A stretch of 64,000 nt of DNA, from assembly GCA_037974965.1 (NCBI GenBank), contig JBBPFI010000002.1, positions 2,728,001-2,792,000 of the forward strand, in the 5' to 3' direction. The position numbers and the translations under genes were made by a program. Shown here one piece after another: positions 24,426 to 46,014 of the stretch. The DNA comes from Dacryopinax spathularia (lineage: Eukaryota > Basidiomycota > Dacrymycetes > Dacrymycetales > Dacrymycetaceae). The notes under the pieces are model-generated. The model was not told the origin of the DNA, ran no database searches, and was given only the letters and a program-made list of their open reading frames with translations. Position 1 is the first letter of the stretch, and each line of letters begins with the position of its first letter.

Positions 24426-24897
24426 CCCATTGTCACACTCTTGGGATGGAACCTGCGGGCGGACCAGATCATCCATTGTTAAGGTTCAAAGTATCGCTGT
24501 TGGCGGTGCTCCGGTCAGGGCGGTCAACCGAGCTAGTGCTGGTCCCGTTAGTATCACGGGTCCATCTATCAAATGCACGGGCGCTAGGTCTTCCGGACTC
24601 AGAATTAGCGCTGATGAGCCTGACTTGGAAGGGGCCGGGCTCCGCCGGCAGGGACCTAGCTCGTCCGTGTTCGCCGATAGTGGAGCTGATTGGTGTGTCG
24701 GAGGCATCACCGATGAGCGTACCGGATATGAATTGATACTATCCATTGCTGGAAAGAAGGTATTGATTTGTGGGGAAAGGGAAGAAGCAGATTTTTTCTT
24801 CGATTGTGAAGAAGAAAGAAAGAAAGAATTTCATCGCTAGACCGGATGTTGGAATGTCGCGTATACAATATGTAATGGCAACTCTATTGACATTGCT

Positions 24898-26595
<1,698 letters not shown>

Positions 26596-28001
26596 GTTGG
26601 ACTGGCAAGTTCAGTGAGTGATGAGACGGGATGGATATGACGCTAGAAAAGAGAAAGGACGGTGCGAAGGTGGAGCCCACGCGCTGATTCCGTTTCCTTA
26701 TAATCTGCGACGACGTGGTGATGTTGTCGGGACGAGATGACAGCACGAGGATCGTTGCATGGCGGGGCGTAAGATCATCGTCGATGGGTGAGACGACGAG
26801 CGTTATGGCAAGGGCTGCGAAAGGATAACGTTAGCGAATCCATGGAATGAGTTGAGCGCTGCGGGCGCACCGTTCGTTTCATCGTGAGGCGATTCGTGTA
26901 CGCGTTATCTGTGCCAATGTAAATGCCGATCGCCGGAGATTACGATGAGTGGGAGCGTACCGACAACAGCGTATGATCTGCCGACGTCGATAAAGGCATC
27001 GTCGTCGCTGATGTCGATGAATGCGTCGCTGTAGTTAGATGCGATAATTGGAGGTTCGTCGTCGAAGTTGAGGATGCTGTTTGTTCATCGTCGGTGACGA
27101 TGAGTCGAACGTCGTCGTCAAGCTCGACGAAGGGACCGTTGACGTCGGATTCGACGAAAAATGGCGGGATCGTGGAGATCGACGAAGTCACCGTCATCGT
27201 CAGTGCTGAAGAAGACAGTGTTGGCGATGATCATGACACTGATGGCGTCGTCGTCAAAGTCGAGGAGTATGTGGATGCGATCGACTTCGACCCAAGGCGA
27301 AACGTTTTCGAATTCGGCGGAAACGATGATGTCGCTGCTAGCAACGAACACGATAATGTAGCGAATATCGACAAAGGCGTGCATGGCGCTTGAATAACGA
27401 TTGAAGTACGAGTGCTGTGGTGACGTTTCATGGACTGTTTCGTTGGGCAACGCGGTGAAGGAGTGTGGGATACGGCGGATTGAAGCGTTGCCATTGATCG
27501 CTTTGTTTTGAGGCCTGTCGAATGTAAGAACATCTAGCTTCTGCGACGAATGAAGTATTGTCAAATGTAGAAGGAGAGGAAAGAGGAGTTGGTGGGACGG
27601 TTTCGTGGTGGTCGCTGAAATGGCGAACTTCATCATACGGGAGGATGATGACGCCTCGTCGATGTGGCTAAGGATATAGTTAAGTGACATCACGCACCAT
27701 AGAGAAGTTCTTATATAAGTGTACCATAGTTAACCGTACACACCAAGGACATAACTTTGCAGTTTTTAAGAAAGTTATATGAAGTCGTTGTCGCTAAGAT
27801 GTAAGTAGAAGGTTAATATCGATGACGAGCCCTGAAGTCAGGTGCTAACGTCACGTGGTTAGAGGAGACAATAGCGCGTTTGCCTCCGCAAAAGCGGAGG
27901 CATTTGTTTGGATGTACTTTTCGTTAGACGCGGAACAAGGGTTTCTTCAACTTCGACAATGACGATCATCCTTCTTCATCGACCTCGACTTAAATCCATC
28001 T
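26596..28001. other. Actin upstream region and GTC/GAC-rich stretch
   Basis: Holds the presumed actin promoter and, at about 26950-27400, a stretch unusually rich in GTC/GAC triplets. That stretch is open in several frames on both strands and encodes imperfect Val/Asp/Ile blocks, but none looks like a known protein. A perfect hairpin lies at 27881-27902. The left edge of the accessory island is probably in this interval. Confidence 0.4.
27881..27902. repeat. Perfect 9-bp hairpin, 4-base loop
   Basis: TGCCTCCGC, AAAA, GCGGAGGCA: a perfect inverted repeat about 100 bases upstream of the first cysteine-cluster gene. GC-rich hairpins occur near Helitron ends, but no CTRR end follows closely on either strand, so its role is open. 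Confidence 0.7.
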
Positions 28002-29776
28002 ATGGCGATCGCTCTTAGTGATACCGAACGCTTTCAAGCGTTGCTCCTGAAGTCAAAGGATGCTGTTGCGTGGCGTTCTCATGTGCAGGAATTCGGTGAT
28101 GTCGCTAAGGTATGTGCATCTTCGACCGCCTCGTCGTTCCATGATTGATCTTATCTATAGGATGTGATCAATCGCGTAGTGGATAGAGACATCACGATGT
28201 TCCGTTCTCTGACTCAGCCGATGAAGGACTTAATGGGGTCGGAGTGGGTTATGCGTATGAGAGGAAGGATGGCGGACGAGTTGCTGGCTTCGACTGGTAC
28301 GGTTACAAGGGTACGCTTTTGTTTTTCCGTTCACGATGAAGCAGTACTAACTTTGTCGTAGACCGCGCAGAACATGACATCATCTGCTCAGGTTGCGAAT
28401 CGACCTTTGGTTACTGTGAGAGTAGTGAGTTCTCTAAGCGAAGACGGACTTGATCGCTTACGCGCTGTTTGTATGTTAGCCTCGCGGTAATGCTTCTTCG
28501 GCAGCTTCGACGACGAACGTTGTGCCTTTTCCTGTTGGTGTTCGGACGCGTACGCAGGAGAAGAGGGAACAGTTTCTTGCCCGTATTTTCGTCGTCAACG
28601 AAGAGTGGCAAGGAAGGATCATATATGCGTATAGTCGTGTCGCGTTGCCTATGAGGGAAGGTCGTGGCGGAGGACGACCTTGGCATAATCCTGTTCCACC
28701 GCAGATCGAGCTTTCCGAGTTGCATCGTAACGGTAGGTTGACGGATGGCACGTGGCATTATGTTCGTCTCGGTCCGGACGTGAAGTTTCCTGCGTACAAG
28801 TTGCAGGCGGCGAGGGAAGTCTTGCCTACGGCGAACAAGATAGAGGTTCTGGATTGGGTGCGTTTATCTTTTTCTAACATGGAGATATTCTGATTCTTTG
28901 TTGCAGATGACGTATGATCATTCCGAGGTTACCAAAGGAAAAGTGAAACATCGCGGCTGGGTAAGCTGTTCTGTCCTTAGTGCGATAAGAAGGTATTGAA
29001 GTTGATTTAGTGTAACATGTGCGAGTACGATTATTGGGCAGACGTTCTCGCCGGCGTTGTTCCCGACCAACGCACGTCCTGCCCTGGTCCTATTATGGGC
29101 ACGTCGAAGATGGGATTCAGCTGTCATAACTGTAGGGATGTGGGGAGAAAGTGTAGCTTTCAAGTTGGTAAGCATAGATTCAAGCTTTCATTTGTCTATC
29201 GCGTACTGAATAACCTGTAGCCTGGTTTGCGCGTTCGCAGAAGTTGAAGCGTGCTATGCTGGAGGGAGAGAAGAAGCGCAAGCTCGACGCTATCGTCTCG
29301 TCGGACGACGATGAGGAAGACAACGTTCCTCAGGTTATCAACGATACGGTATCCCGTCCTTCCACTATGGTGCCTTCTTCTTCCAGGACTGTTGACAACG
29401 CTGGGGCATCTTCTTCGTCGGCGAGGAAGGAAGCTAATGCATTCGCTGCGGACTTGGAGAAGGACGGGATCGCGTTTATACCTTCGGCGACGGTTACGGG
29501 GAAAAAGAAGAGTACGAAGCCGGAAGGGGAGAGGTCTTTAGATTGGTATCGTAAGTTCCATGGTTACTTATTGCAACGACGTGTATGACAGGGATATCAG
29601 GTGGCTTCATCGAACGTCTCGACGACCAGGTCAAGCGTCTCTCGGCGGATTTCGATGCCGTCCGTAGGTCTAACGGACACGTGAATTTTGAGCAAGTTCC
29701 TATGCGCATGTCGATGCTCGAACAAATGTTGAAGGACGGGAAGGCCAACTTAGCAAAGCTGGCGTCGGGTCTGTAG
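28002..29776 (+). CDS. Six-cysteine cluster protein, island copy 1
   Basis: Eight exons give about 474 residues: 28002-28109, 28161-28310, 28362-28424, 28480-28857, 28907-28960, 29011-29167, 29221-29550 and 29592-29776, all with consistent phases and GT..AG ends. The N-terminal 110 residues look helical (MAIALSDTERFQALLLKS). A middle block contains LSELHRNGRLTDGTWHYVRL. Exon 6 is the cysteine module: C252, C255, C275, C289, C292 and C299, spaced C-x2-C-x19-C-x13-C-x2-C-x6-C. A basic and acidic linker (KKRKLDAIVSSDDDEED) follows, then a helical last exon. The module suggests a zinc-binding, possibly nucleic-acid-binding, nuclear protein; that is inference. It is not a canonical Zn2Cys6 finger, because cysteines 2 and 3 are 19 rather than 6 residues apart. 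Paralogous to the genes at 31109, 41236 and 43456. Confidence 0.8.
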
Positions 29777-30075
29777 ATAAAAAAGGACTTCAATTGCGCT
29801 TTGCGCCAAAAGTATTTTCTTCATCATTTATTTCACATCATTCATCTGTTCCTCGAGGGCTTATGCAAAAGAGACGTGTTCGTGTTCGTGTTGTTATGGT
29901 GACAGGAGGAGGAATCATGCAGTTACAGGCGGTCTTTCTTTTCCAGTTACCCGTTGACTTCCGTAGGAACAGTAATATAGTACGTTTGAACACGTGACAG
30001 CATCTCGTGCGTCATCAATGGTCAGATGCCTCGTCGCGGCAACTAAAGATGTTGTCTTTCCACACTGTGTCGTCA

Positions 30076-30961
30076 ATGGCCCCGGAGGAAGGAAATGCTT
30101 CTTCGTCAAATGCGAAAGTGGTCATACCTGCATGGGTGTTGGATGAGATGTATCGACAAGCGGGAGACCATCCATTACGACGCATGAACATCCTTGCGAG
30201 CATGGAAAGCACCTGGGAGGAGATGACAACAAATGAACCGGGTTTGATTAGGGTGGGTTTGAATGTAATTCTGAGTGTTTCGCATTCTGATGCTCTATAG
30301 ACCATGATTGTTCCTTATCTTGAGAAGAATCCGGATGAAGTACGTCTATTGTTTCCTGAAGTAAGGAGGTTCCTCGGGGAGGACTACGTGGACAGGCTAC
30401 TGGAGAAAGGCCGAGGACGAACCTTTTCGTCAAGAAAGAACACCGAAGTACCGTCATGGTATCCGCTCGATTGGGGTTAGTGGAGCCAAGTGTCTTTCTA
30501 AAGGAAGTACAGTATTCGATGATTCATCTTGGCAGATGAACGACCAGACTTCGTTGGAAGGCATCGCGAACGATCTGGCGGGGAGAGAAGGGAGAAAGAG
30601 GAGAAATCAGTCCAAACATCAGGCGACATGATCATATGTGCGTTGTCAAAATCGTTTAAGTAGTCGTTATTAAGTACTCCTTATTACAGCGACGAACAGA
30701 GCATTGAGTGAGTACTAATTTGAAAGGACGAATTGCGTTGTAATATTTGTAGGATCGGTTATGATGAAGATTGAAGATCAAGTCCTTCGGCTGAATGACG
30801 AATGGAGAACGTTCAAAGCCGTTTTGACGGAAGAGGAGTGGGAAAGGGTACATAGCAGTATTAAGTCGGTGCAAGAGGAAGTACTCGGCATGAAGGAGGA
30901 ATGTAGAGCGGGGACTCCCTCGCATCCATCATTGTCGATGTGGGAAGACAATGATGATTAG
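30076..30961 (+). CDS. Unknown small protein of the island, no cysteine cluster
   Basis: About six exons with matching phases: start MAPEEGNASSSN, then VVIPAWVLDEMYRQAGDH; second exon from 30301 (TMIVPYLEKNPDEVRLLF); an Arg/Lys/Glu-rich exon near 30539; a mini exon near 30713-30731; and a last exon from about 30756 encoding a charged helix (MMKIEDQVLRLNDEWRTF) and the end SMWEDNDD. I recognise no domain. The last exon is amphipathic and could form a coiled coil. It lies between two cysteine-cluster genes on the same strand and may work with them; only position supports this. An upstream in-frame ATG at 30007 is an alternative start. Confidence 0.6.
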
Positions 30962-31108
30962 TAGGGTACATATGCGAGCTCGGAGATGTATGTAAAGTCC
31001 TCCGGACGCGCCGATGAAGCACGCAGTACGCAGACGGAGGCAAACAGACGGAGGTATCACTGAGGGGCGCCGATGGAGACGAACCATCAAATCCTTCCCT
31101 GCAACCAT

Positions 31109-32677
31109 CATGTCAGTGCTTTCGACCAGAGAGAGATTTGAGCTAGAGAATGCTTTTCGCTCATTCTGTGCTGCTTCATGGCAGTCAACGTGGCCGAGCT
31201 ATGTGCGAGCCAACAAGAGTTATATCAGCGTGCGTTTATACTTTGAAGCGGAGGCTGTTGCTGACAGCTTCGTGCTAGTCGAAGATTCAAGGATATGTTG
31301 ACGCTAATCTCCAAGCATTCAGCCGTCTTACGCCTGGAATGGTCGCTGCGGTGGATGAGCAATGGCTCAAGGAGAAAAGGGATGAGTATCGAGAGTTAGA
31401 TCCTCGTCTGTCCTCGATGAAGTACTATATGAGTTTGTCCATCTGGCAATGCAGCGTCTTTGTTACTGATGACGATATGGAAGGGGACGGTGGAAGCTAT
31501 GGCGGTACTGTTCGGAGAGAAGAAGGACGCTCCTGTCACCGAGGTGAAGTTATTTGATGTCTTTAGAAACGAACTGCTGACATTGAGGATGTAGATTGTG
31601 CAAGCTACGAGGAAAGAAAGTTCTATTACTCGTACGTCGTACACGACGGAAAGCATTCCTTCGGCATTCAGAGGGCAACGCGGCTACCTTCTGAAAGCCA
31701 TACCCGAGGAAATCGTCAAGTCCGTCGTTGTTCCGACGACGAATAATCCGTCTGCAGGACCTGTTCATATGGTTCGAATCCCACCAGGTCTTCAGCTATC
31801 ACCGTTGCAAGCGCAAGCCGCTTTGATCGCTCTTCCTTCCGCGGATAAAGTCACGTCGATTTACACGGTGTGTATTCAAGTTGATTGATGGGATGGTTGG
31901 TTGATTCGCCCGTGTGTAGAATGAAAGATTAAAGGACGACGTGCGTCAATTCGAAGGATGGGTAATGGCGTGTATACACGTGGAGGGACTTGGTTGATGA
32001 TAATATTTGCAGTGCTCAACCTGCATCTTCTATTACTGGCAAGATCGCAAGGCCGGTGTTCGTCGTGATAGACGTACTCAGTGTGGTGGACCGATCTTTA
32101 TCAAGGAAATGGATACATTCGCGTGTCACATGTGCTGGGACAGTGGACTCATTTGCGAATTCACATCGCGTAAGTGATCTATTCTGCGTGTGCGTAAGCG
32201 GAAAGAACTAACATTTATGGTAGTTTATAAATTCGAGATTAAGCGAGCAACTTATGACTTCAACGCAGCAGATAAAAGTCTTGCGAACGAGCTACTGAAG
32301 CACATGCAGCAGAAGACCGCGGTACTGAAGCGTCGATATTCCTTCCCCGCGAGCTCCGGAGGAAGTCCCATCAAAGGCGAGCCTACTTTGCCGAAAGAGC
32401 CTAAGAAGGCCGAGATAGGCGAAAATACCATCGAAGCCGAAGGAGGAAAACGTGAATTTGGTAAGTTCTTAGAAGGACGCTATTCTGTATCCGGAAGTAA
32501 TAGTATCTTCTAGGAGGAACGCTCATCGCGATCAAGAGGTCTATCGATCATGCAGACCGTCGTTTGGAGAAAACGATTCAAGAGAATGACGGAATTAACT
32601 GGAAGGTTGCTGCTGATCTGTTCACTCTGATCAAAGATCGCACCAACGAGTCCCTCGTAGCGTTAGGAGCAATGTAG
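31109..32677 (+). CDS. Six-cysteine cluster protein, island copy 2
   Basis: Paralogue of the gene at 28002. Starts MSVLSTRERFELENAFRSF, again helical. Middle exons include GTVEAMAVLFGEKKDAPVTE (about 31480-31545) and a block ending IALPSADKVTSIYT, which aligns with VLPTANKIEVLDW of copy 1. The cysteine exon is 32013-32169, 157 bases, with spacing C-x2-C-x19-C-x13-C-x2-C-x6-C and CGGP after the third cysteine. The following exon carries KRRYSFPASSGGSP and a Lys/Glu-rich stretch. The last exon (32514-32677, 164 bases) encodes a helix (RSIDHADRRLEKTIQEN) and ends ALGAM. Some borders near 31230-31480 are uncertain because more than one frame is open there. Function unknown; metal binding inferred from the cysteines. 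Confidence 0.75.
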
Positions 32678-33046
32678 ATAGGTTTTTTCCGGTGATCACG
32701 AATTAGGTTATTTCGTCCGTAAATGAATGACCGATGAATGTTTTTCAAATATGGACGAAGAACGATAAGAGGTGGAATGCGTTGTCTGACCAAAGTGAAC
32801 CACTCGGAACACGACATAGTGTGATCTATCAGGTCGACGAAAGTAGATGGAAGGATAGCTGTGTCAACGTTAATCAAGGTCGAGAACGAAATTGAGTGCA
32901 AGGCGAAGCACAGAGGCGGCCGTCGAACAGAACATAAATGCCAAGATTGAAAGTAATTTAGACGAAATCGTTATTCAGCTTGCTGTAGCGGAGGGAATGA
33001 TACGTAGCGGCCCCTCCAGTAACATAAGAAGAAAATGCATAGATCG
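32678..33046. other. Convergent intergenic region
   Basis: About 370 bases between two converging genes. Nothing recognisable. Confidence 0.45.
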
Positions 33047-34422
33047 CTACTGAGTCTGCGAAACCGCCCCCCGTCTTCTGGAGCTACCAGAAGGTCCATC
33101 TACGAGGCGTCGCTTCTTTAGTGGGGACGTACTGATTACCGCAGGAGGGGAGACGACGATAATGTCGTAAGGTGTTAGGACGAAGGTACTCTTGTTCTCC
33201 TTTGCGATATGGTAATACTTGAACGTTAACTTGATTTTGACTACAGCGCCTTGTAGCTCGTCCTTCCACAGCGAAGGACTGATAAGACGACCGTTCGATG
33301 CGTAAGCCGGAAGCGGCAACGGCACATGCGTGGCTTTCAAGCGAGCTAGCTCATGTTCGATCGCCGCAGGAACGGTCCAATCGTCCCAGACGTGGTAGTC
33401 TACATTGTCTACAGATGATACATGATAAGCTGATGCGAACGGAATGAACAATAACGTACGCACCTGCCTGACCACCATCATCTCCTCCGCTCAACCAATC
33501 ATCCTTTGTTTGAGCAGTGGGTCGACGCTAGGCGAAGTGCGCATCAGCATATATCATCAAAAAAGCCTGAAGCGAGACCCACCTCGAACAAAGGCCAGCT
33601 GATCCTGATGCATCCTTCCTTTACGACGGACAATATTTCCGTGCCAGGGTATGCAACCCGTTCTTGGAGTTGCTCGATATTCCGAAGGGCGGATTCGTAG
33701 AGCACATCGAAAGGGGCACGATCCGGGTTCGTTAAAAGTGCACTCGCCTTCTGTTTGCTGAAATCCCGTGAGAAGGTACCATCCCGGCGCCATCCACCAT
33801 GGGGCGTAAGATTGAAGTTCTCTTCGGAAATGCGAGCGATGAGGGTTAGATGCGCTGCCGCTTCACCATCATGCAGAATGACGCCGTCGGCTTTATTGAG
33901 CACGCCCCAGGTGAGTAACGACATGTCCTGTGGATCAGAAAGATTGTAACCCGACTCCTTGATCCAAGTAAGAAGCGCTTGTTCACGATAAGACACCGAT
34001 CTGTCGGGCGTGGCCGAACGTTGATTAGGCGACGCAGTAGGCGTGACTGCGGAACCTGACACTGTCGACGTGACGAGGGAACCGGTTTCGCTCAATGGTG
34101 CGTCGTCATCAGACTTGGCTACAAAATTGAATCAGCAAGTCTTTCGTAAAAAGAAGAGATGCTTACACGAGAGGACAGCATGATTCCCGCTATCGGTCGG
34201 GATGGATGATCAACGAATACGGAACAGAAAGAACAGTGGAAACACAGCGCACCAATCGACAGAGTTTGGCAAAGAAGAAATTTGCTCGCCCGAAGGTGCA
34301 TCAGCTTCAATCACGTCCCCGGAGTTGGAGGGTGTAGCTGAATCCGAAGCACTTGGACTGTCGGATGTAACGGTGTCAGCCGACCTATTACGCGGATTAC
34401 GACGAGGTTGTGTTCGAGTCAT
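33047..34422 (-). CDS. Unknown island protein, three or more exons
   Basis: The first exon (34422 to about 34255) is low-complexity, starting MTRTQPRRNPRNRSAD and rich in Ser, Asp and Pro. The second (about 34120-33560) encodes a folded-looking block: QALLTWIKESGYNLSD, LLTWGVLNKADGVILHD, HLTLIARISEENFNLTP, FDVLYESALRNIEQLQERV. The last exon (about 33455-33047) contains HVWDDWTVPAAIEHELARL, HVPLPLPAY, a beta-rich segment (GAVVKIKLTFKYYHIAKE) and a basic tail with KKRRLVDGP that could act as a nuclear signal. I do not recognise the family and see no catalytic motif. It is the only minus-strand gene on the left side of the Helitron and lies 600 bases from it. Confidence 0.65.
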
Positions 34423-35038
34423 GATTATGCGACAGAAGCCGAGGGAAAGGCGTCTGAGAAGGGTAACGGGATATTCAAGGTAGGGGAAAGGTGAAGACAG
34501 GGGGTAAATCCACGACGTTCAAGATGGTGAGTTAGTTATAGGGCAAGCAGTACACCGCACTGGAAAATTCCATAACGATGCACGGAGCGCACGTTGATGA
34601 GCCCAAGAAATAGAAGACCGGTTTTCTATCTAGCTAACATCTTCGTGACAGCCGAATGTGCTGATAGGCTCGGCAACGCGCCCTGCGAAACTGCCGAGTG
34701 AATATAATGATGCGGAAGCGAATACGAAAGCGGGCTACACATTCTTATCAGCTTCCATCCTTTCGAATAAGACGAAATTGAGTTTCGGTTAACTCGGAGA
34801 CGACACGAAAGACGTATTAGCCGGAAAAAATCACGGACACCTTCATAGGCAATCCATCGCATCACCGAATGATGGCAGTCATGGCGATTTGTATACGAAA
34901 GAATCGGGAGTCCACTGGTATCACATCAGCTAGTCTTCGCCTTCTCGTCCAATCACGATGATATGTGACAGTCTAATAGTGCTATATAGCTACAAGTACG
35001 CTAGCCATAGAAGCATGTAAATCAGCACGTCTCTGACC
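34423..35038. other. Region upstream of the Helitron Rep
   Basis: About 615 bases with no supported gene, between the minus-strand orphan and the Rep start. If the Helitron is limited to its own genes, its 5' TC end should be here; I could not single out one. Confidence 0.4.
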
Positions 35039-37409
35039 ATGTCGCTTTCGAGCTTAACTAAGACGGAAATCATTCATGCGCTCCCTCATATACCTTTCAC
35101 CGCATCAGCAAGGCGAAGTAAGCAACGACTGCTCGACGCATTATCTAGCGTCGATGCAAGCGAACTGGAGGCGCTGGAAAGATTCGCAGCGGAGAAAGAA
35201 CTACGAAAGAGCAAAAGACGAGAAGAGCAAAAGAACAATCGAGCTTTGCGACAGCGAGAAAGAAGGCGACGGAAGAGAGAAGAGAACGACGCAGAGTTTG
35301 CCCGGAAGAGAAGACGAGTGGTGGATCAACGCGGAACCAAAACGGCATGGTACTCTGAGACGGAGGAAGATCCACGTGAATTTATGCGCCCGCCCGATGA
35401 TGAAACATTGCGACAGTGCCATCTGGATTTTCTTATGGCGACCGGGAACGATGCACTAATGTCGCAAACATGCTGTTGTTGCGCCGGCGAATTTTTCGCC
35501 CAAGAAATGCAGTCGATGCGATTTGAAGATATACCCAACTCTCAACTGCTTATCCCGGAGAAAAGTATCGAGGGGCATCGGACAAATCTGAGAGACGGCA
35601 AGCTCATAGCAATACCAGCATTGGACAAGGATGTGATCTGGATGTGTCCAGAATGTCTGAAAGATCTTCAAGCAGCACGATTACCGGCTTGGTCATTGGC
35701 GAACTCGATGTGGATCGGCAAAACACCGATCGAGATCTCCCAAATGACGCTTTCCGAGCAACTGCTCGTCGCTCATCATTATCCACGAGTTTTCCAATTC
35801 AAAATGTATCCGAAGACGAAAAGAAGCAATAAATATCTCAACTTCGATAGCGTACCGAATGGCATGCGAGGCAATGTGGTCCTATTTCGGCTTGAGCAGT
35901 CGGAGATCGTCAAAATGCTTGATGGACGTATATTCCCAAGGCCGCTGGAGGTGTTGTCCTCCGTGATCGCGATATCGTTCATTGGATTGATGAAACTGGA
36001 GGACATTCGTAAGCATTGGCTGAAGAAGACATTCAGCGTACGACGCTCGGTAGTATGGAACGCGCTACGGTGGTTAAAGAAGAACAATCGGTTTTATCAT
36101 GAACTGGAGCTGGATGATCGGAGGTTCTATGAACGCATATCATCGTTACCCGAGGATGAGATCCCAACAGAAATATTAGCCATTATTCGGTACGAAGATC
36201 GAACAATCGGGGTGGATATGGAAGATGATCCGTATCAACCCGAGAGGGATGACGACATTCTTCAAGGAAGTGAGCCAAAAACATACCGAATTCCAGATGA
36301 ATCTGCTCACGCGCCATGTCGTAGATCTCGAAACCGATTACGTTGTTCCATTGCGGACACTCGGGGTGGAAGATACGGATCTTACTCGAGCTAGTCAGCA
36401 TGAGCTCATGATGAACGCGCTTGCACGGATGGACGAGTCCACCTCCGAGGGAGGTTACGCCGTTCGCCATGCAAGGAAACCTTTAAACGACTTCGGCAAA
36501 AATCCAGATGGTACGACAAAAGACGGTCATAATCCTTTAGCAGCAGCATTTATCGCATTATTTCCGTACGGAGAAGGGGGTCCGGAGGATTCGAGAAGTG
36601 TGGAGGTTTCTTTCAAAGAGCACATGCGATGGACGCTACGGTATCACGACCAAAGATTCCGTCGGCATGGTTCCTGGATTTTCGTTGCGTTCAGCATAAT
36701 TCAGAAGAGAGAAGCATTACGATCAGCAAGACTACAGATGCGCAAGACAGATTTTCAGAGAGCCACAGCCGAACTTGCCAGTATAACCATAGAGGATCTG
36801 CGACAAGCAGCCGATGAAGAGCAGCGAAATATTCCCTTCTCGAATCCCGCTGTCGCGAAATTACGGAAGCAACTTCAGGCCGTAGGCGCGCGCGTCATGG
36901 GTTCTGATGCGGCGAGAGTAGCTTTGCGCAATCATATATGGGGAACCACATTTTATTTCGGGCCTCCTAACATATGGTTCACTATATCGCCGAACGATCT
37001 CCACGATCCCGTCTTACAAATCTTCGCCGGAGAAGACATCGACATGGATTGTTTTCTGTCCACAGCAGGTCCGAACTGTCACAAGAGAGCCAAGAATGTT
37101 GCGAATGATCCATATGCGGCTGCCAAATTTTTTCAGTATACCATGAACGCATTCCTGAAGCACATGATGCGGGTTGATCACAAGGATGGTATGCGGGGAA
37201 ACGTATTCAGTCAAGGAGGTAGACGACTTGCGAGGTCTACCGGCAACCGGTTTGAATCGGAGATGGGTATATTAGGCGAAATCAAGGCCTATTTCGGACC
37301 GATTGAGATCCAAGGCAAATCAACCTTACATAGCCATTTCATCATCTGGCTAAAAAACTCTCCGTCCGCCTACGAAACGAAGGAACGGCTAAAAGACGCG
37401 GCGTTTTGA
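35039..37409 (+). pseudogene. Helitron Rep, N-terminal and HUH part
   Basis: Begins MSLSSLTKTEIIHALPHI with a short helical, SAP-like motif, then a strongly basic stretch (35160-35330). A cysteine set follows (CCCCAGEF near 35465 and MCPECL near 35645), then LPAWSLANSMWIG and LLVAHHYPRVFQFKMYP, which match the DUF6570-type region found before Helitron Rep domains. The frame shifts by one near 36250-36270. After it comes the Helitron-like N domain: NIWFTISPNDLHDPV, AAKFFQYTMNAFLKHMM, GEIKAYFGPIEIQGK and the HUH-type LHSHFIIWL near 37330. A TGA at 37407-37409 ends this open stretch; the same frame continues directly past it with the rest of Rep. The break lies between the metal-binding His motif and the catalytic tyrosines. 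Confidence 0.88.
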
Positions 37410-38144
37410 GACCGGATGGCGGATTACATTTCCCAAGTGATCAAGGCCGACATTCCGGAACTTCGACCTGAAAATATATCCACAGTTCAGAAAAACTCGG
37501 AATGTTCATATTCTCGACCGCCGAACCCACTCGATCCCAACTATTCCGTGCTTTGCAAGGAGATGGAGAGGGAAATCGTGAGGACCTTACAGCTTCATAC
37601 GTGCTCTACGGATACATGTTTACGGTCAGACCGAAACGGGAAGATGGTGTGCAAACGACATGCACCGTTCCCCTTGAGCGACGAGTCCTATGTTCACCCG
37701 AACGGACAATGGGGAACCCGGCGATTACACCCATACATGAACGGGTGGAACACGGCAACAGCCATTTCGATGCGTTGCAATCATGATATCAAACTCCTCA
37801 CCAATGGAGAGGATACCAAAGACGTCGCTTTCTACATCGCGAACTATGCGGCGAAGAAGCAAGGACGCAGTTACAATATGATGGCACTGCTACCCGACAA
37901 ATTGCTATACCACTTTGAGGAAAACGACAACATCCACGCAGCCAGAGAAAGGAATCAATTACTTATCTATCGATGTTTCAACATCCTTAACAGAGAACAA
38001 GAAAAATCTGCGTCACAATGTGTTATGTATATTATGGGATGGGGAGATGTATGGCAATCGCACGCTTACATCACCGTATATTGGACAACGATTATGGCGG
38101 AGCTATATCGGGTGTATCCCGAGATCGACGAGCATCAAAGGTAA
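37410..38144 (+). pseudogene. Helitron Rep, tyrosine-motif part
   Basis: Continues the HUH domain in the same frame after the TGA (DRMADYISQVIKAD). A His/Cys set (CSTDTCLRSDRNGKMVCKR) precedes NGWNTATAISMRCNHDIK. The catalytic motif is FYIANYAAKK near 37830-37860, with two tyrosines four positions apart as in Helitron Reps. It ends with MGWGDVWQSHAYITVYW and YRVYPEID, then TAA at 38142-38144. A good donor (GTAAGA) overlaps the stop at 38141. Confidence 0.85.
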
Positions 38145-38361
38145 GACAACGCAACCATAATAGACAACGATCAAGACTGACCGCGGAGAACAGACAGTAT
38201 AGGAGGAACGATTCAACTGTTGCTGTGGAAGAAGAAAGACGGGTAGAAGAAGCATATGCAGAGATGGAGTCCAACGATGTGAGAAGACACCCTGTGACGG
38301 GACCATACTCAAACGCTGATCATGACATGTGTTCGTTCATTATTAACAGGATGATATCATC

Positions 38362-40938
38362 ATGGAAACAAATGATGAAGGTCACATGGTACCGCAAGCA
38401 AACCAGCTCCTCCAATACATTCACCGAGGAGATGATCTAGAAGGCTGGTGCCTTCTCAGCTTCCTTCTCGACACCTACGAAGAGAAAGAAGTCGAATCTG
38501 AAGAGAAGCGGCTAGGAAGAAGAAGAAACCGGCGTAGTCGTTACCGATCAACTTACGAACACGCGGAAACGAGGACTCGGATTCATTGTTCAATACATCA
38601 TAACACCCTGCCAAGTTTTTCCGGGCGATGGCCTCCGCGTGCCGACAATCTTCGCACTACAACAGCACATAAAGCAGCCATGATGTGCCTTTTAAAACCA
38701 TGGCGAGCCCTCATGGAGCTCAAAGGCGACGCGTCATCATGGGACGAAGCGTATGAGGAATTTTTGCTCGACGCACCGAAGCGAGTTCACGATATCATCA
38801 GTAATATCCAGTACTTCTATGAATGTCGAACTCGGGCGGAGGAACATGTGGACATAGGACGGGCACCTGGCGAGACAGAGGAGACCATCATCAACCGCAC
38901 AGACATCAGAGACGAACCGTCGAGCGATGATGAATACAATGAAGAAGAATTACCCGAAGGAAGAGTCACAAACTTTGAAGCCCTGACCGAGCTGGACTGG
39001 AGAATACTCGAAGACGCCACCCAACCAGTAAGAGAGCTAAGCTTTGGAATAGAGGCGGTGGCAAAGGCGCTTGGGCTAGGAATCTTCAAGGAGATAAACG
39101 AAACATGGTCTCTCAAAGAAACAGATGAAACAGAACTGCATCTCGGAAATGAAGAATACTTGTCTATTTGGCAGCAGACACTTGCGCTCAATGTACAGCA
39201 TGCGCTTAGCGACAGACTGAACATCAGTCACACCTTGGATGAAGAAAGCAGCACCCTAATACAACCCTTGGTCGAAATCTTAGACCAGCAGATTCAAGGT
39301 CTGCTTCCACAAGACATCGGTCTTAGCGCGCCAATGGACGCCGTCGACATGGAAGGCCTGAAGCCAGAACAGAGAAGAGCTTTCGACATTGTTAGACGAC
39401 ATACCGAAAGAACGTTTCACGGTCAACAACCCCCACAACTACTCATGCTGCTTTATGGAGAGGGAGGAACAGGAAAATCAAGGGTGATTCAAAGCATCAC
39501 ACAACTATTCAACATGCCAGGTAAATGGCATTTGCTCTTGAAAGCAGCATACACGGGAATTGCAGCCTCCTTAATCGATGGACTCACGCTTCACCATATC
39601 ACCATGATACCCGTTAAACGGAAACAACGCACCAATGCAGAAGTGGGGCCACGAACACTAGCGAAAATGGTGTCACTTTGGCGACATCCCGTATATCTCA
39701 TAATTGACGAGATATCAATGTGTTCCAAGGACTTTTTGGCGAAAGTCTCGCGCCATATTTCGATTGCTAAGCTTGCCGCCGACCCAAACACAAATCCGGA
39801 TCTACCGTTCGGCGGAGTTAACGTTATAATCGCTGGAGACTTTCATCAATTCCCACCGGTTGCAAACAAGAGAAATGCGGCTTTGTACACACCGGCACAC
39901 CCGACAAAAGACAACGAGGACGAACGTCTAGGACGACACATCTATCTTCAGTTCAGGACCGTGGTAGTCCTAAAAGAACAATGCCGTGTTCAAGATCCTA
40001 CCTGGTTAGCGTTTCTTCATCGATCACGAAATGGACTATGCACTCAGGACGACATTCAAATGCTGAGAGGTCTGGTTCTTGGGAACGAAGACTGTCCTCC
40101 TACCGACTTTGATAATGTACCCTGGAACAACGCCGTTCTAATTACTTCAAGGCACACTGTACGAGCGAAATGGAACGATGCCGCGGTTTCCAAGCATTGT
40201 CAGCAAAGCGGCCAAATACTACTCATATCGAAAGCATATGACACGGTGGATGGAAAAGAAATATCTGCACAACTACGATATCGAATGCTAACAGAACAAA
40301 GAAAGAAGACACGTGTCGGACGTCAACAAGGAGGACTTCCGAATGAAGTTCCGCTAGCAATCGGCATGAATGTAATGGTGACATTGAATGTCCAAACCGA
40401 GCTTGATATCGCCAACGGCGCGAGAGGCGAAATAGTGGGCATTGGATTGCATGACGATGATTTTCCTTCGTTGGGAACTACGCACCGACAATATCTCCAC
40501 AGACCACCACGATACGTGCTGGTGAAACTGCAAAGAACAAAAGCGAACCCACTACCCGGGCTGCCAGCTGACGTTGTTCCTGTTACGCCGCTTGAAAAGA
40601 GATTCAAAGTACGCCTCAGAAATGGAGAAGAAAAAACCGTAGTACGACAGCAACTTCCCATGACGCCGGCCTATGCCTTTACGGACTATCGCGCTCAAGG
40701 ACAAACGCTGCCCTTCGTAATAGTCGACATTGCTAACCCCCCCTCTGGAGGCATTACGCCATTCAACGCGTACGTTGCACTTTCAAGAAGTCGAGGACGA
40801 GACAGTATCCGTCTATTACGAGATTTTGACACAACGCTATTTACCACGCACGCAAGCGAATTCCTTTGTTTAGAGGATGAGCGTATTAACGAGTTAGACG
40901 AAGAAACGCGAAAGGCATATGAACATAATATATACTAA
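38362..40938 (+). CDS. Helitron Pif1-type DNA helicase domain
   Basis: Open frame of 858 codons. An N-terminal linker (38362-39330) precedes a full superfamily 1B helicase: Walker A GEGGTGKSRVIQS near 39460, Walker B LIIDEISM near 39700, motif III VIIAGDFHQFPPV near 39830, QCRVQDPTW near 39980, and C-terminal motifs TDYRAQGQTLPFVIVD near 40690 and AYVALSRSRGRD near 40770. It unwinds DNA 5' to 3' during transposition. In intact Helitrons this is fused to Rep. Here the join to Rep is lost: the obvious intron (GTAAGA at 38141, TAACAG ending 38349) would be out of phase. The ATG at 38362 is simply the first in the open frame. Confidence 0.93.
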   Translation: METNDEGHMVPQANQLLQYIHRGDDLEGWCLLSFLLDTYEEKEVESEEKRLGRRRNRRSRYRSTYEHAETRTRIHCSIHHNTLPSFSGRWPPRADNLRTTTAHKAAMMCLLKPWRALMELKGDASSWDEAYEEFLLDAPKRVHDIISNIQYFYECRTRAEEHVDIGRAPGETEETIINRTDIRDEPSSDDEYNEEELPEGRVTNFEALTELDWRILEDATQPVRELSFGIEAVAKALGLGIFKEINETWSLKETDETELHLGNEEYLSIWQQTLALNVQHALSDRLNISHTLDEESSTLIQPLVEILDQQIQGLLPQDIGLSAPMDAVDMEGLKPEQRRAFDIVRRHTERTFHGQQPPQLLMLLYGEGGTGKSRVIQSITQLFNMPGKWHLLLKAAYTGIAASLIDGLTLHHITMIPVKRKQRTNAEVGPRTLAKMVSLWRHPVYLIIDEISMCSKDFLAKVSRHISIAKLAADPNTNPDLPFGGVNVIIAGDFHQFPPVANKRNAALYTPAHPTKDNEDERLGRHIYLQFRTVVVLKEQCRVQDPTWLAFLHRSRNGLCTQDDIQMLRGLVLGNEDCPPTDFDNVPWNNAVLITSRHTVRAKWNDAAVSKHCQQSGQILLISKAYDTVDGKEISAQLRYRMLTEQRKKTRVGRQQGGLPNEVPLAIGMNVMVTLNVQTELDIANGARGEIVGIGLHDDDFPSLGTTHRQYLHRPPRYVLVKLQRTKANPLPGLPADVVPVTPLEKRFKVRLRNGEEKTVVRQQLPMTPAYAFTDYRAQGQTLPFVIVDIANPPSGGITPFNAYVALSRSRGRDSIRLLRDFDTTLFTTHASEFLCLEDERINELDEETRKAYEHNIY

Positions 40939-41235
40939 CGAATTTACGATTTAAATATTGACGCATCGCTGTTGCCATCGTCCCGGAACACATCACGACG
41001 ACGGAAACTACAGCACACGACGCGTTCAGCTGAGTGCAACCATTGAAACTGCGAAAAATGAAAGGTCACTTATTAGATAAACACGGCATGTCAGACATAG
41101 ATGGTCCACGACATCCAATCTCTTTACGAATGAAATGCGCTGAATATATTTGCATTACTGCCTATGGATTATAGAGCTCTTTCTGATCGGGCATGACGGT
41201 TATATGGAGAAAACAACACTTAGAAGGATCACGCG
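40939..41235. other. Spacer between helicase and next island gene
   Basis: About 300 AT-richer bases. A Helitron limited to its Rep/helicase would have its CTRR end here; a CTGA occurs near 41030 but without a convincing hairpin before it. Confidence 0.35.
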
Positions 41236-43100
41236 TTACACTTTGACATACACCTTCAGCTCGTCCAACAACGCAATCTCCGCACGTAAGACCTGGTCGA
41301 GAATAGCACCGGGGACCACGCTAGGATACTCATCCATCTTAGCCAACACTTCCGTTTTCAACGACCCGATATACTCTTGCACATCCAGCATATAATGAAC
41401 TATAGAGGGCATGAGCGGAGGATAGACAAACGAAGATGAAGACACATACCTTTTCCCGACTCCCGCTTCACATCCAACATTTTCGCAGCATTGACAGAGG
41501 AGGACTTGGACACGGGCTTCTCCCTCCGACCGGTCGAAGGGCCAGACGTCGCATTAACGGGTAAACCACCGCTGCCGGTTGCAAGTTCATTGATCCCGGA
41601 AATTGATAACAAGGAACGCTTTTTCATCGTCCCCTCCTTGGATGTATACCACACCGGATGATCATAATGACGATTGTGATGGAGAGGAGCGTTTTCTTCG
41701 GTTACGTTAAGCGCACGCAAAGCACCCATTTCATGTTGAACATCTATACGATACATGACCAAACGTAAGCTTCACAGAATCGCAGGGAAGAAGAAACACA
41801 AGCAGCATACCTCTGGCAAATTCGCATCGTATACCGCGCTCAAGGCAATTGTAGCAAGACCACGCAGTCTCACCCTCCACCATCTTGATCGGTCCCCCAC
41901 AGACTGTGCGCAGCTCCCTGAATACCCCGCGCTTCTTCTCCGCAGCATACTGATCATCGCACTCGGAACACTTCGAAACGGCATCAGTTCGGCACGCAAC
42001 CACGCCACTGGATAAAGCATACCCAGCCGCGGTGCATATCACCTACTTCCGACACATCATCGGCAGTCTGCAAGACGAATAAGATCACCCAGAAGGAAAG
42101 AAAAGAAAGACGATAACCTCTGCGATGTCTTCCACCTCCAGGGCGGACGGCAACGAATTATAAGCCGCGACCTCTTCAACAGCTGATACCAAAGCGTTGC
42201 GGGTCATACGGTAGTGGAATTTCGCCTCAACTTCACCATCCACCCGCATCGCGAAGAGGTCCGCATCTTCTACAACCGACGGAATCTTGGGTACTCCTTC
42301 GCCGTCTTTCAACCGGCTTCCGATCCAACCCCAACCGGATCGAACGGCTTTAGACACAACAGCAAGAGCCTCTTCACGGGATCTGTGGGCAATGAAGGAC
42401 GTTTACGAGGCAAGAACAATACACTCTTACAGGAAGACCCCACTCGGATTACTCATCACAAGCCCTTCATCATCCGAAGAGATTTCGATGACCTCAGCAT
42501 TAATTCCTATATAACACGTCAGATTCCAGTGATTCCAATATCGATATTAAATAGACCCACTCGGAGAAACGGAAGGATCCTGATTCAACCGACGCTTCTT
42601 CGACATCCTACCCGAAGAAGGATCCTAGATGCAAAACAGACGTCAGCCAAAAAGAGCGATACAACAATATCGAAATAAAGTACATCTACCTTATTACGAG
42701 AAACAGCCGCGCTCGTTTCTGAGGACTCGATCGTATCATCGCCATCATAGAGTTCTTTAAACTGCTCCTCAGCAGCATCACCCATATCATCGCCGAACAC
42801 GCTAGAGAGATAGAGTCGATGCGCCCTGAGACTGAACTCGCGACCCAGGAGATGCATCAGAGGACGCGCAGATGATACATCAGACCACAGATCGATATTC
42901 TCGGCCAGCAACGCTTTCACCGAGGACTGCAAAGCCATCAACATCTCAAACCACGATGATGAATCCAACAAGATGCTTACACGGAGTCGCTCCCGTCCTT
43001 TCTCCGTACCCGTCAAGAGCCTCCACTTCGCCTCATCAGAGACAGACGCCATCAATGAACAAAAGATCTTCACGTTTGAATCATCAGCAGAGGGCGCCAT
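41236..43100 (-). CDS. Six-cysteine cluster protein, island copy 3
   Basis: Paralogue on the minus strand, facing the Helitron. First exon from 43100 to about 42690, MAPSADDSNVKIFCSLMA, helical, ending in Asp/Glu/Ser-rich sequence. A middle exon (about 42350-42120) encodes AVRSGWGWIGSRLKDGEG and YNSLPSALEVEDIAE, corresponding to the block before the cysteine exon in copies 1 and 2. The cysteine exon is 41811-41970, 160 bases, one codon longer than the others: C-x2-C-x19-C-x14-C-x2-C-x6-C, with CGGPI after the third cysteine. The next exon has HPVWYTSKEGTMKKRSLLS. The last exon (41236-41399) is 164 bases, the same length as in copy 2, and encodes a helical end (YIGSLKTEVLAKMDEYP ... LKVYVKV). 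Probably a nuclear zinc-binding protein; unproven. Confidence 0.75.
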
Positions 43101-43455
43101 GTCGACGAGCACGAAGGGGAAAGGTATTAGTTCGACAAAAGCGAAACAGGAGACAGGCGGTATATCGAGTTTTCGAAACAGAAGCGGAATCAAACATCTG
43201 AACCCGTGCCGAAGGGCAAAATGTCAGCTAACAGGAGTAAAGAACAACGATGACACATCACTTATCACGTAAGCAGCCAGAATATTTACAGGATCGGAAA
43301 GAAGCATTGATCCTCTAGACTGTTTGAGGAGAGCAAGAACATCAATACTACAACCGAGCGTTTATCAAAACTAGTGTCATACAAGAGGAATACGATTACA
43401 GTCGCGCTAGATTGCAGCACGGCATACAATAGAAAACACAACAAGCACGACCAAT

Positions 43456-45541
43456 TCAAGATCCTCCGTTACTACGATGATTGCGCGCTTCCGTCAACAG
43501 CAAGGCCATGTTTCCCGCGAGAACCAAAGTTTCATCGAGATAATCCAAAAACAGCGAACGATCTATGTCGGACTGATGCGCAATAAGCTTTATACACTGC
43601 AAGCGACCCTGCAAGACATCCAGATAAATGCCTGCCATCAAACACGATCAGCCCGAATGCCATAAGAACAATTATCAAACTGACTGGATTCATCAGACGT
43701 AGATACGCCAACACCAACGACGTGACCGTCGTCATTTACGACCTTTCGCCTCTTCGCCGAGACATGCTTAGAAGACCGTATCTGTGATACGCGTTTGGCG
43801 GTGCGAGATGAACCGGAGCGGGAGCGTAAATCCGCCGCGGCGGCGTTAATCTTTGCCTCTAACGCAGACGTAAGAACCAAACACAATATCATCATCAACG
43901 ACACGTACCCCGTTGCAATGAACACGTCAAGTTGCCCTTTCTACAATGGTCACACCCATGACCAGCTTTTTTGCTATACTTGAGAGAACCAGAACAGCGA
44001 ACGCGGGCACCTTCCACGACCTGATCCTGCTTCTGCCGGATGTGCTTCTTGATGCACTTTTCACACTAAAAATAGCGGGATAAGCACCTTCACACAACAA
44101 ACCGACAAGCAACAAACCCAGCCATGCGGGAAAACCGACGCAGCACCTCCGGAAGACTACTCATCGAATCAGACACGACAAGTCAACACCCCATTGAATC
44201 ACGAAAGGCGCACCACATCAGTGCCAGATGGAGACAAAGCAGCCACGGCATCCAGCTATAATACATGAGCACTCTTCCAACCGAACTAGACAGGGACACT
44301 GTAATAATTCAGCAAAGCGAATTAACCAACTAACAGAGATTACGGACCTCACCGAATGGACGGACGGTGACCGATCCGCAACATCCAAAGAGGCTGATAA
44401 GTCCGTCGAAACCACAGTGGAAGAGACAGCAGACGAATCCGGGTCCTCCATCCGTGCGCCATCCACATATGGAGAGCGCGAGCCCGAAACATCATCTCCA
44501 CGCAACTAGATAAGAGTGTCAAGAATAACGACGACATAAAGACAGAAGACAAAGCATACTCCACCGGATGTGGTAGACAGCAAAGACGCAGCCACAAAGG
44601 ACAACGCATCTCCACCACCGCGACCAGTCTTGCGTACGTCAACAACCACCCGACTATAATCCAAACATCACATACCGACGAGACACCATTTCCAGAGCCA
44701 ACAGGATAACCATTTGAACCGGACGCCAACCAATCCTGCGCGCCTACATCAACACAAACACAATCCGAGAACGAAACACAGAGCAAGACTCACCGATCCA
44801 ACTCCGTTAGACGATACAGGCACCGCATTCCTCACAGGCTCTTCTGGAGGCTACAACAAAATCAACTCACTGCCGCATATAGAACGAAACTATTCACCAT
44901 TAAGGCAACAGCATTTCCCTTGCCCCCGGAACCGACATCCAAGACTTCATCCTCGTCCAAAAACATATTCGAAAGCTACGATCTCATATAAGATCGAAGA
45001 CACGAAGGGACGAGAGAGTAAAACGAGGCTGACAATGTAGCTTGGATCACAATCCACCCCACCCTCACCGACCCGCTCCAGGGACTTCCTCAGCTTTTGA
45101 GCCTTCAGAGCCACCTCGTAACGACTCTTAGCCGCATCGATCCAGCCCTTGTCAAAGAGCCCGAGAACTGCCGACGGAAGACGCTCCCAGGACAGAGGCG
45201 CAGCACGAAGACTCTCGTCAACCAAGGACTTGAACACAGCAATCCAACCTTCTCCCAAAAACGACACCACCTTAGAGGGAACCGACTCGAACAAGGTCCA
45301 ATTCGCCTCCAAAACAGACGTCAACACGACCTAAACAAACGATCGCATCAGTACATCATCGAGATTAACGAAGTAGACCCACCCTAGTCGACCGCTCCAT
45401 AGGCGACGACGTTACAAAGTCCCAAAACGCCTCGCTCTCCGGCGCCGCCGCCCGAAGTATATTCTTGAACTGCTTCAACAGATTGTTCGAAAGACGAGCA
45501 TCTCCACCAGGTTTGACAAAGGAGGACGAAGACTCCATCAT
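43456..45541 (-). CDS. Six-cysteine cluster protein, island copy 4
   Basis: Most divergent paralogue. The first exon starts MMESSSSFVKPGGDARLS at 45541 (or 45538) with helix NNLLKQFKNILRAA. The second (about 45329-45040) encodes SVLEANWTLFESVPSKVV and AVLGLFDKGWIDAAKSRYE. Then comes a long linker of small Ser/Gly/Asp-rich exons (44930-44390), for example PPEEPVRNAVPVSS and STDLSASLDVADRSPS. The cysteine exon is 43909-44065, 157 bases: CEKC, C-SGS, CDHC, C with the same spacing C-x2-C-x19-C-x13-C-x2-C-x6-C. After it come KINAAAADLRSRSGSS and a basic VSAKRRKVV patch. The last exon (43456-43631) is helical and ends RNHRSNGGS. The middle exon chain is less sure than in the other copies. Confidence 0.65.
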
Positions 45542-46014
45542 CGCAGGGGCAGAAGGACGTTCAATCAATGTCCTGCAGACAGAAAGAAGACCCCTCTTAA
45601 CGAAAGATGCACCATATCGCCATGCGAAGGAAGCAAATGAATCACATGCACACTCCAATAACTCCGACGAAGCGAATCACGTCATGGAAGCAATGCAACT
45701 CGCAACGGAAACAAATACGGGAAAACCTTGAAACTGCATCGACGGCCGAGGGGAAACCTCCCCACCGCAGGGAAGAAGCACAGATAATCATCCCAAACGG
45801 AGACAAAAAATCAAAACGTTTCCGACGAATTTACATTACCTTTCCCTGGACCCTTACCCCCTGCACGAAAACAGGGCACGCATTCAGGACGGGGGAAAGA
45901 CCTACCTCTAACGAGCTAGGTAATTGCACAGCCGCGTTGAACCCTCACTGCTTTCGGCCAACTTCCCTCTGTCGTGCGCACCTCTGCTCTACAGCCAAGT
46001 GCAACTTCTGTTGT

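What the first reader, a model, noticed from the sequence alone, without database searches (positions are those of the whole stretch)
28002..45541. A four-member family with a six-cysteine module C-x2-C-x19-C-x13/14-C-x2-C-x6-C
Seen: four genes (28002, 31109 on plus; 41236, 43456 on minus) share exactly this spacing, with CPGP, CGGP, CGGP and CSGS at the third cysteine and C-x2-C-x6-C at the end. Outside the module they are strongly diverged, so the spacing is under constraint. Known: Zn2Cys6 fungal factors use C-x2-C-x6-C-x5-12-C-x2-C-x6-8-C; the 19-residue gap does not fit. Inference: a separate zinc-binding module, probably nuclear and DNA- or RNA-binding, that I cannot match to a described family.
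Basis: partly seen in the sequence, partly recalled or inferred. Interest (0 to 1): 0.85.

Follow-up and report, generated by a model that had tools for sequence, protein, structure and literature searches.

The report
Helitron transposon's own six-cysteine proteins
The four six-cysteine genes are real, but they lie inside a 21-kilobase rolling-circle transposon (a Helitron), and every element of that lineage found in this genome carries its own set, so they look like dedicated helper proteins of the transposon rather than ordinary fungal genes.

Summary
The spacing is confirmed in four genes (4 hits; 0 in 300 shuffles). The module fills one exon that starts at the first cysteine, after a conserved W|C intron. 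The genes sit inside a ~21.3-kb Helitron2-like element, window ~24624-45923: a ~99% copy of equal span lies on contig C1 with unrelated flanks, five small relatives share both tips, the tips hold an asymmetric 11-bp inverted repeat and a hairpin, and a DUF6570/Helitron_like_N/PIF1 gene lies between them. Genome-wide, 21 module places lie at 7 of 45 Helitron Rep loci; in a tree of 44 Rep rows those 7 form one group, support 99/100. Gene order recurs, the module is constrained between elements, and most of the genes share an N-terminal motif. No Pfam, NCBIfam or PDB match is significant; DUF3716 and Zn2Cys6 are sub-threshold leads. Best reading: element-encoded, probably zinc- and DNA-binding helpers of Helitron transposition or regulation. 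Location and linkage are shown; zinc, DNA binding and role are inferred. A new accessory-gene variant of a known transposon kind.

The parts
24624..45923 (.). whole Helitron2-like element, about 21.3 kb (tips uncertain by 1-2 nt)
   Evidence: ~99% copy at C1:1860724-1882028 with unrelated flanks (its middle was read only in part); tips aligned over the copies and small relatives
24624..24665 (-). element end with GC-rich hairpin and the inner copy of the 11-bp asymmetric inverted repeat (24654-24664); read on the minus strand this is the 3' end by the Helitron convention
45903..45923 (-). element end with the outer copy of the 11-bp inverted repeat (45911-45921), 2 nt from the tip
25200..26480 (-). 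captured host actin gene piece (wider DNA match 24874-26714, 96% to C1:233729-235571); limits approximate
   Evidence: PF00022 E=8.4e-49 on 25763-26311; DNA match
28002..29776 (+). gene A, type I module gene (471 aa)
29011..29154 (+). six-cysteine module of A (CPGP)
30076..30961 (+). gene E: probable relative (226 aa), weak N-terminal motif, no cysteine module
   Evidence: open spliced frame; motif at 30307-30396, i-E 0.02
31110..32677 (+). gene B, type I module gene (407 aa)
32013..32156 (+). six-cysteine module of B (CGGP)
33047..34422 (-). OrfX: conserved companion gene, no Pfam match; exons 34118-33583, 33527-33464, 33408-33047, first exon(s) not settled
   Evidence: matched in the C10, C1b and C14 elements at 38-43% identity; model; Pfam none
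35021..40938 (+). Rep/helicase gene of the Helitron, its frames interrupted in this copy
   Evidence: DUF6570 E=2.7e-34, Helitron_like_N E=7.3e-33, PIF1 E=5.4e-23; frames
41236..43100 (-). gene C, type I module gene (476 aa)
41824..41970 (-). six-cysteine module of C (CGGP)
43456..45541 (-). gene D, type II module gene (492 aa)
43922..44065 (-). six-cysteine module of D (CSGS)

Best explanation
The four genes are accessory genes of a large Helitron2-like rolling-circle transposon (window ~24624-45923), not host genes. They belong to a protein family found at every member of one Helitron lineage in this genome, most simply gained once on its stem, with a type I gene (CGGP) and a type II gene (CSGS) around the Rep/helicase gene. 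The proteins typically have an N-terminal motif, the six-cysteine module and a tail that looks helix-rich by eye. Most likely the six cysteines hold zinc and the module binds DNA, and the proteins work in the nucleus with Rep/helicase: they recognise the element's own ends or promoters, to help start or control rolling-circle transposition. SHOWN: location in the element, element anatomy, one-group distribution, recurring arrangement, constraint on the module between elements. INFERRED: zinc, DNA binding, nuclear site, and the choice between a transposition helper and a regulator of the element's genes.
For: Window 24620-30000 and 45600-45923 match C1 at 99%, the match stops at the element edges, and the two spans differ by 1 nt in length; four further ~3.15-kb stretches of the copy are 99.1-99.4% identical without gaps. 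Both tips are shared with 5 small relatives on C6, C4, C10, C14, C2. 11-bp asymmetric inverted repeat plus hairpin, as described for Helitron2 in PMC5148889 (passages). Rep/helicase domains. Of 45 PF14214 loci in the genome, 7 have module genes and at 38 none was found; the 7 form one side of a branch, support 99/100, in a tree of 44 of the 45. Same convergent layout around Rep/helicase and OrfX in the C10, C1b and C14 elements. Module pN 0.12-0.29 against pS 0.76-0.96 in six type II pairs, and pN 0.32-0.51 against pS 0.84-0.97 in six type I pairs. Genes A-D show no indel and no stop change between the two window-type copies. N-terminal motif: of 15 module genes (young copies not counted) 7 built the profile, 5 held-out ones hit at i-E 1.1e-5 or better, 2 weakly (0.015, 0.08), 1 (C) not; nothing below E 0.3 in the ~62 kb of sequence outside elements.
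Against: No direct evidence of zinc, DNA binding or expression. AF2 on the four window modules: mean pLDDT 63, pTM 0.34, no fold match. Between the two young window-type copies changes in A-D are mostly non-synonymous (31 against 17 synonymous), i.e. no sign of purifying selection on that short time scale. One of the 21 module places (C3:1595491) has lost the sixth cysteine and runs into a stop. The window copy's Rep/helicase frame is interrupted, so this copy may not be autonomous. Helitrons capture genes, as the actin piece shows.
Confidence: 0.6

Rival explanations
1. Passenger cargo: a host zinc-finger gene family was captured by a Helitron and is carried along without a function for the element, perhaps serving the host.
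For: The same element carries a captured actin piece 96% identical to another copy on C1; Helitrons of Pleurotus carry captured genes (PMC4289320, title and abstract listing, passages); mostly non-synonymous changes between the young copies.
Against: No module copy outside the 7 element loci in four searches of the genome (the only other hit is C7:876484, E 0.2; the searches score only the best candidates); one-group distribution; kept in the same layout while Rep/helicase blocks diverged to 41-73% identity; constraint on the module between elements.
Confidence: 0.17
2. Diverged member of a known fungal zinc family (Zn2Cys6 PF00172 or DUF3716 PF12511) recruited as an element transcription factor; the 19-residue gap is an insertion in an old fold.
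For: DUF3716 aligns over nearly the whole of module C (E 0.041, residues 3-51, profile 10-49 of 59); Zn_clus is hit weakly by 3 of 14 members (best E 0.057); the profile against PDB sequences is topped by the Zn2Cys6 factor AlcR (E 0.024, over the second half).
Against: All below curated cut-offs (DUF3716 14.2 bits against 22); DUF3716 hits only 1 of 14 members and the full C protein only at E 0.68; profile-profile comparison with six Zn2Cys6 domains aligns only 14 columns, C-x2-C-x6-C, at probability 46%.
Confidence: 0.15
3. The module binds protein partners (RING- or ribbon-like) and counters host silencing of the element rather than binding DNA.
For: Weak RING-like hits (zf_RING_Vps8, 2 of 14 members, best E 0.066); other fungal DNA transposons carry a presumed anti-silencing enzyme, TET/JBP, including Helitron1 and Helitron2 (PMC12730594, passages).
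Against: No conserved histidine and no RING-like spacing in the alignment; basic residues inside the module, which suit nucleic acid (by eye).
Confidence: 0.08

Closest known systems
Helitron2 elements, such as FoHeli of Fusarium oxysporum (PMC5148889, passages read)
   Same: Rep plus helicase protein; asymmetric terminal inverted repeats with one copy set back from the tip; hairpin
   Different: about 18-22 kb against ~5-11 kb in the passages; intron-rich accessory genes with a six-cysteine module; different tip sequences
Plant Helitrons with RPA, and animal Helitrons with zinc-finger, endonuclease or protease domains (as summarised in PMC4289320, passage)
   Same: extra protein functions beside Rep/helicase in the same element
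   Different: here separate genes of a family with no significant Pfam match
Fungal DNA transposons with TET/JBP genes, incl. Helitron1 and Helitron2 (PMC12730594, passages)
   Same: an accessory gene kept by transposon lineages in fungi
   Different: the accessory protein here carries a small cysteine module, not a dioxygenase
Zn2Cys6 fungal factors (PF00172)
   Same: six cysteines, second half C-x2-C-x6-C
   Different: first half C-x2-C-x19-C instead of C-x2-C-x6-C; no significant profile match
DUF3716 (PF12511)
   Same: aligned over most of the profile in one member
   Different: below cut-off, 1 of 14 members

Membership tests
Helitron (rolling-circle transposon) | Rep domain and PIF1-type helicase in one gene region | tested here: met
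   Helitron_like_N E=7.3e-33, PIF1 E=5.4e-23, DUF6570 E=2.7e-34
Helitron (rolling-circle transposon) | defined ends found at several loci, with non-autonomous copies | tested here: met
   two ~99% large copies and five small relatives share the tips
Helitron (rolling-circle transposon) | insertion without target duplication | tested here: inconclusive
   no duplicated stretch seen by eye at the flanks of the copies, but no empty site was available
Helitron1 (canonical) | 5'-TC and 3'-CTRR ends | tested here: not met
   tips read TTACCTAG... and ...TTCCAAG(T); the second subfamily starts with TC but does not end in CTRR
Helitron2 | asymmetric terminal inverted repeats with hairpin | tested here: met
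   11-bp repeat 2 nt from one tip and ~30 nt from the other; GCCGG/CCGGC hairpin
Helitron2 | Rep groups with reference Helitron2 proteins | not tested
   no reference Helitron2 proteins were at hand; the tree holds this genome only
Zn2Cys6 (PF00172) | C-x2-C-x6-C-x5-12-C-x2-C-x6-8-C spacing (as the finding states it) | tested here: not met
   19-20 residues between Cys2 and Cys3 in the 14 aligned modules
Zn2Cys6 (PF00172) | score above the curated cut-off | tested here: not met
   3 of 14 members listed, best E 0.057; module D 10.6 bits against cut-off 21
DUF3716 (PF12511) | score above the curated cut-off of 22 bits | tested here: not met
   best 14.2 bits; 1 of 14 members
zinc-binding module | metal bound by the six cysteines | not testable with these tools
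   AF2 model of low confidence

The most novel reading that the evidence does not exclude
This clade of Helitrons runs a dedicated two-protein DNA-recognition system: type I and type II six-cysteine proteins bind the two different ends (or the element's promoters) and load or license Rep/helicase, making it a Helitron lineage with its own end-recognition factors and a zinc module of a new type.
Probability: 0.25. Interest if true: 0.8.

Novelty: new variant of a known kind. Interest (0 to 1): 0.6.

Why it matters
How Helitrons find their ends and regulate themselves is, to my knowledge (recalled), poorly known, and accessory genes are few. Here a group of large fungal Helitrons keeps a family of six-cysteine proteins that matches no described domain significantly, in a recurring place beside Rep/helicase and constrained between elements. 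If the proteins bind the element's ends, the initiation step of Helitron transposition becomes open to test. It also warns that an apparent host zinc-finger family in a fungal genome can be transposon-encoded.

Tried and rejected
Diploid or dikaryon reading: at first C1 ~1862-1878k looked like the other allele of the window. Rejected: the C1/C2 match stops at window 24620 and 45923, and C1:1799001-1838000 matches C2:2728001-2812000 only in three diverged Rep/helicase stretches.

Tandem host gene family: rejected by the element boundaries and by the distribution.

KDZ-type CxC domains: considered from recall; no such family appears among the Pfam matches listed up to E 10.

Lowest Pfam E-values of all were short partial matches below cut-off and not taken as homology: DNA_ligase_ZBD 0.0034 (17.7 bits, cut-off 25.8; residues 30-50 of module C) and C1_1 0.0076 (16.5 bits, cut-off 26.5; residues 31-49 of module A); each was met in one module only.

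Protein homologues elsewhere: none for full-length A or the 14-module profile; the viral-contig scan could not run with this alignment. To my understanding the collections are mainly prokaryotic, so this says nothing about other fungi. PF12511 was not found in the genome, but the control was silent too, so that is uninformative.

Fold: AF2 on four modules too poor; Foldseek best E 5.

Nearest other Helitron (C3:1392368): no module or N-terminal motif in 12 kb of its surroundings (best E 0.18 and 1.3); only part of its neighbourhood was read, and it has a long branch.

Ab initio splicing: my gene finder ran genes together or missed the GTTTGT donor in some runs; final A-D introns and frames were printed. 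The model of C used for the substitution counts was 480 aa and differs slightly at one exon end from the final one (476 aa). A first check of gene E used a wrong start and did not read through; the corrected one does.

Papers: searches listed no report that I recognised of a six-cysteine accessory family in Helitrons; I read passages of five papers only, and subscription papers are mostly not held, so this is not proof of absence.
Full report
OBSERVATION. Splicing gives proteins of 471, 407, 476 and 492 aa. In each gene the module is one exon that begins with the first cysteine, after an intron that interrupts ...W|C... between codons.

WHERE THE GENES LIVE. A search of the window's own assembly (29.2 Mb, 24 contigs, unnamed; the host was not identified) shows that window 24620-30000 matches C1:1876647-1882028 at 99% and window 45600-45923 matches C1:1860724-1861047 at 99%, each stopping at the outer edge. 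The two spans are 21,304 and 21,305 bp, with unrelated flanks. Of the copy's interior I read four ~3.15-kb stretches (99.1-99.4%, no gaps) and the Rep domain. The two tips also occur together in four ~320-370-bp elements on C6, C4, C10 and C14 and one 3-kb element on C2. They carry an 11-bp inverted repeat, 2 nt from the right tip but ~30 nt from the left tip, and a GC hairpin at the left. Between genes B and C lies a Rep/helicase gene: DUF6570, Helitron_like_N and PIF1. Asymmetric repeats are what PMC5148889 (passages) gives for Helitron2; the canonical TC...CTRR ends are absent. If the hairpin end is the 3' end, Rep/helicase reads against the element's 5'-3' direction; PMC5148889 (figure legend passage) notes ORFs of opposite orientation in some FoHeli groups.

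THE FAMILY IN THE GENOME. Three module queries give 21 places in all (the searches score only the best candidates): four in the window, four in its C1 copy, two each in elements on C10 (C10:~481366-499450), C1 (C1:~1808897-1831245, here 'C1b'), C14 (C14:840886-859417) and C11 (C11:491649-510217), and five on C3 around 1576-1606k. C14 and C11 are a second pair of 98-99% copies with sharp ends. The C10 and C1b ends were set by likeness of their tips only. The C3 ends were not determined. A pattern scan collected 16 sequence variants, each starting right after AG; 14 were aligned, the two young C1-copy variants being left out. In these 14 the six cysteines and one glycine are invariant. One place, C3:1595491, fits the profile (i-E 1.2e-9) but lacks the sixth cysteine and runs into a stop, so it is probably decayed; it is not in the alignment.

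LINKAGE TO ONE HELITRON LINEAGE. The genome holds 45 Helitron_like_N loci, all above the Pfam cut-off. Seven are the Rep genes of the module-bearing elements; no module was found at the other 38 (one of them, C14:821165, lies ~22 kb from a module but outside that element's ends). In a tree of 44 of the 45 (C12:842453 was not fetched) the seven form one group with 99/100 support, one change of label, 0 of 500 shuffles as low. Near-copies (window/C1, C14/C11) are among the seven, so about five lineages count as independent. The nearest other Rep, C3:1392368, shows no module or N-terminal motif in 12 kb around it.

LAYOUT AND CONSTRAINT. The C10, C1b and C14 elements align with the window's element: Rep/helicase 41-59% identical per block, OrfX 38-43%, a type II gene just beyond the helicase end and a type I gene on the far side of OrfX. 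The C3 locus has the window-like order, two genes on one side of Rep and three on the other (positions and strands). Among type II modules of four element types (six pairs) pS is 0.76-0.96 (saturated) and pN 0.12-0.29; among four type I modules (six pairs) pS is 0.84-0.97 and pN 0.32-0.51. So amino acids were held while silent sites were randomised, more tightly in type II. Against this, between the two young copies of the window's element changes in A-D are mostly non-synonymous (17 synonymous, 31 non-synonymous base changes), although no frame is broken; this fits relaxed constraint since the last copying.

THE PROTEINS. A profile of seven N-terminal segments (around F-M-G-x-x-W) finds five held-out module genes: C1b type II (i-E 9.6e-12) and four on C3 (1.7e-9, 3.2e-10, 1.1e-5, 1.1e-5). 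It finds B (0.015) and the C3 type I gene (0.08) only weakly, and did not report C, where the likeness is by eye. Module-less relatives are hit at C14:858628 (4.7e-7), C1b:1827184 (8.7e-5), C10:498743 (0.0016) and window 30307-30396 (0.02). Nothing falls below E 0.3 in the ~62 kb outside elements. No full model reaches a Pfam cut-off (A and B; D and E; C).

WHAT THE MODULE IS. Whole-module lead: DUF3716, E 0.041 for module C with flank, 1 of 14 members, E 0.68 in the full C protein. Zn_clus: 3 of 14, best E 0.057. Lower E-values were short partial hits (DNA_ligase_ZBD 0.0034, C1_1 0.0076), also under cut-off. PDB sequences: AlcR, E 0.024, over the second half only. A profile comparison with six Zn2Cys6 domains aligns 14 columns at 46%. 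NCBIfam: none; PHROGs: three families at E 0.06-0.28, one member each. I therefore file it under none of these; a distant link to fungal zinc clusters stays open. The AF2 model is not good enough to judge a metal site.

HOW IT MAY WORK. Conservation beside Rep/helicase in two subtypes, basic stretches and six invariant cysteines point to an element-encoded nuclear DNA-binding helper: end recognition for rolling-circle transposition, or control of the element's genes. The evidence does not separate the two. Parallels are transposons with extra DNA-binding or anti-silencing genes (PMC12730594, passages; PMC4289320, passages).

VERDICT.

Noticed in passing
window 24874-26714 (minus): Piece of an actin gene captured inside the Helitron, 96% identical to C1:233729-235571.
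   Followed up: partly
window 35021-40938: The Rep/helicase frame of this copy is interrupted, while the copy on C1 has a longer open frame over the Rep domain (654 against 409 aa).
   Followed up: partly
window 33047-34422 (minus): OrfX, a second conserved gene of this Helitron clade with no Pfam match; present in all four element types compared.
   Followed up: partly
own genome: 45 Helitron Rep loci in 29 Mb, in at least three groups by Rep match and frame length, many with open frames of about 2000 aa.
   Followed up: partly
window 3566-3652, 9809-9895, 48063-48149 and 5519-5638, 11877-11996, 50249-50368: Repeated stretches (68-73%) on both sides of the element that look by eye like ABC-transporter nucleotide-binding parts; the far right of the window also has 68-69% relatives at C2:2865466 and C2:2795694.
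   Followed up: no
C14:858530-858628, C10:498654-498743, C1:1827080-1827184: Further element genes with the N-terminal motif, no cysteine module seen with them, near the far end of the elements.
   Followed up: no
C14:838002-838614: A 613-bp stretch beside the C14 element is 95% identical to C3:1360890-1361502 with inverted ends, probably another small repeat.
   Followed up: no
C5:764337-764594, C17:~431000: Small relatives carrying the tips of the second Helitron subfamily.
   Followed up: partly
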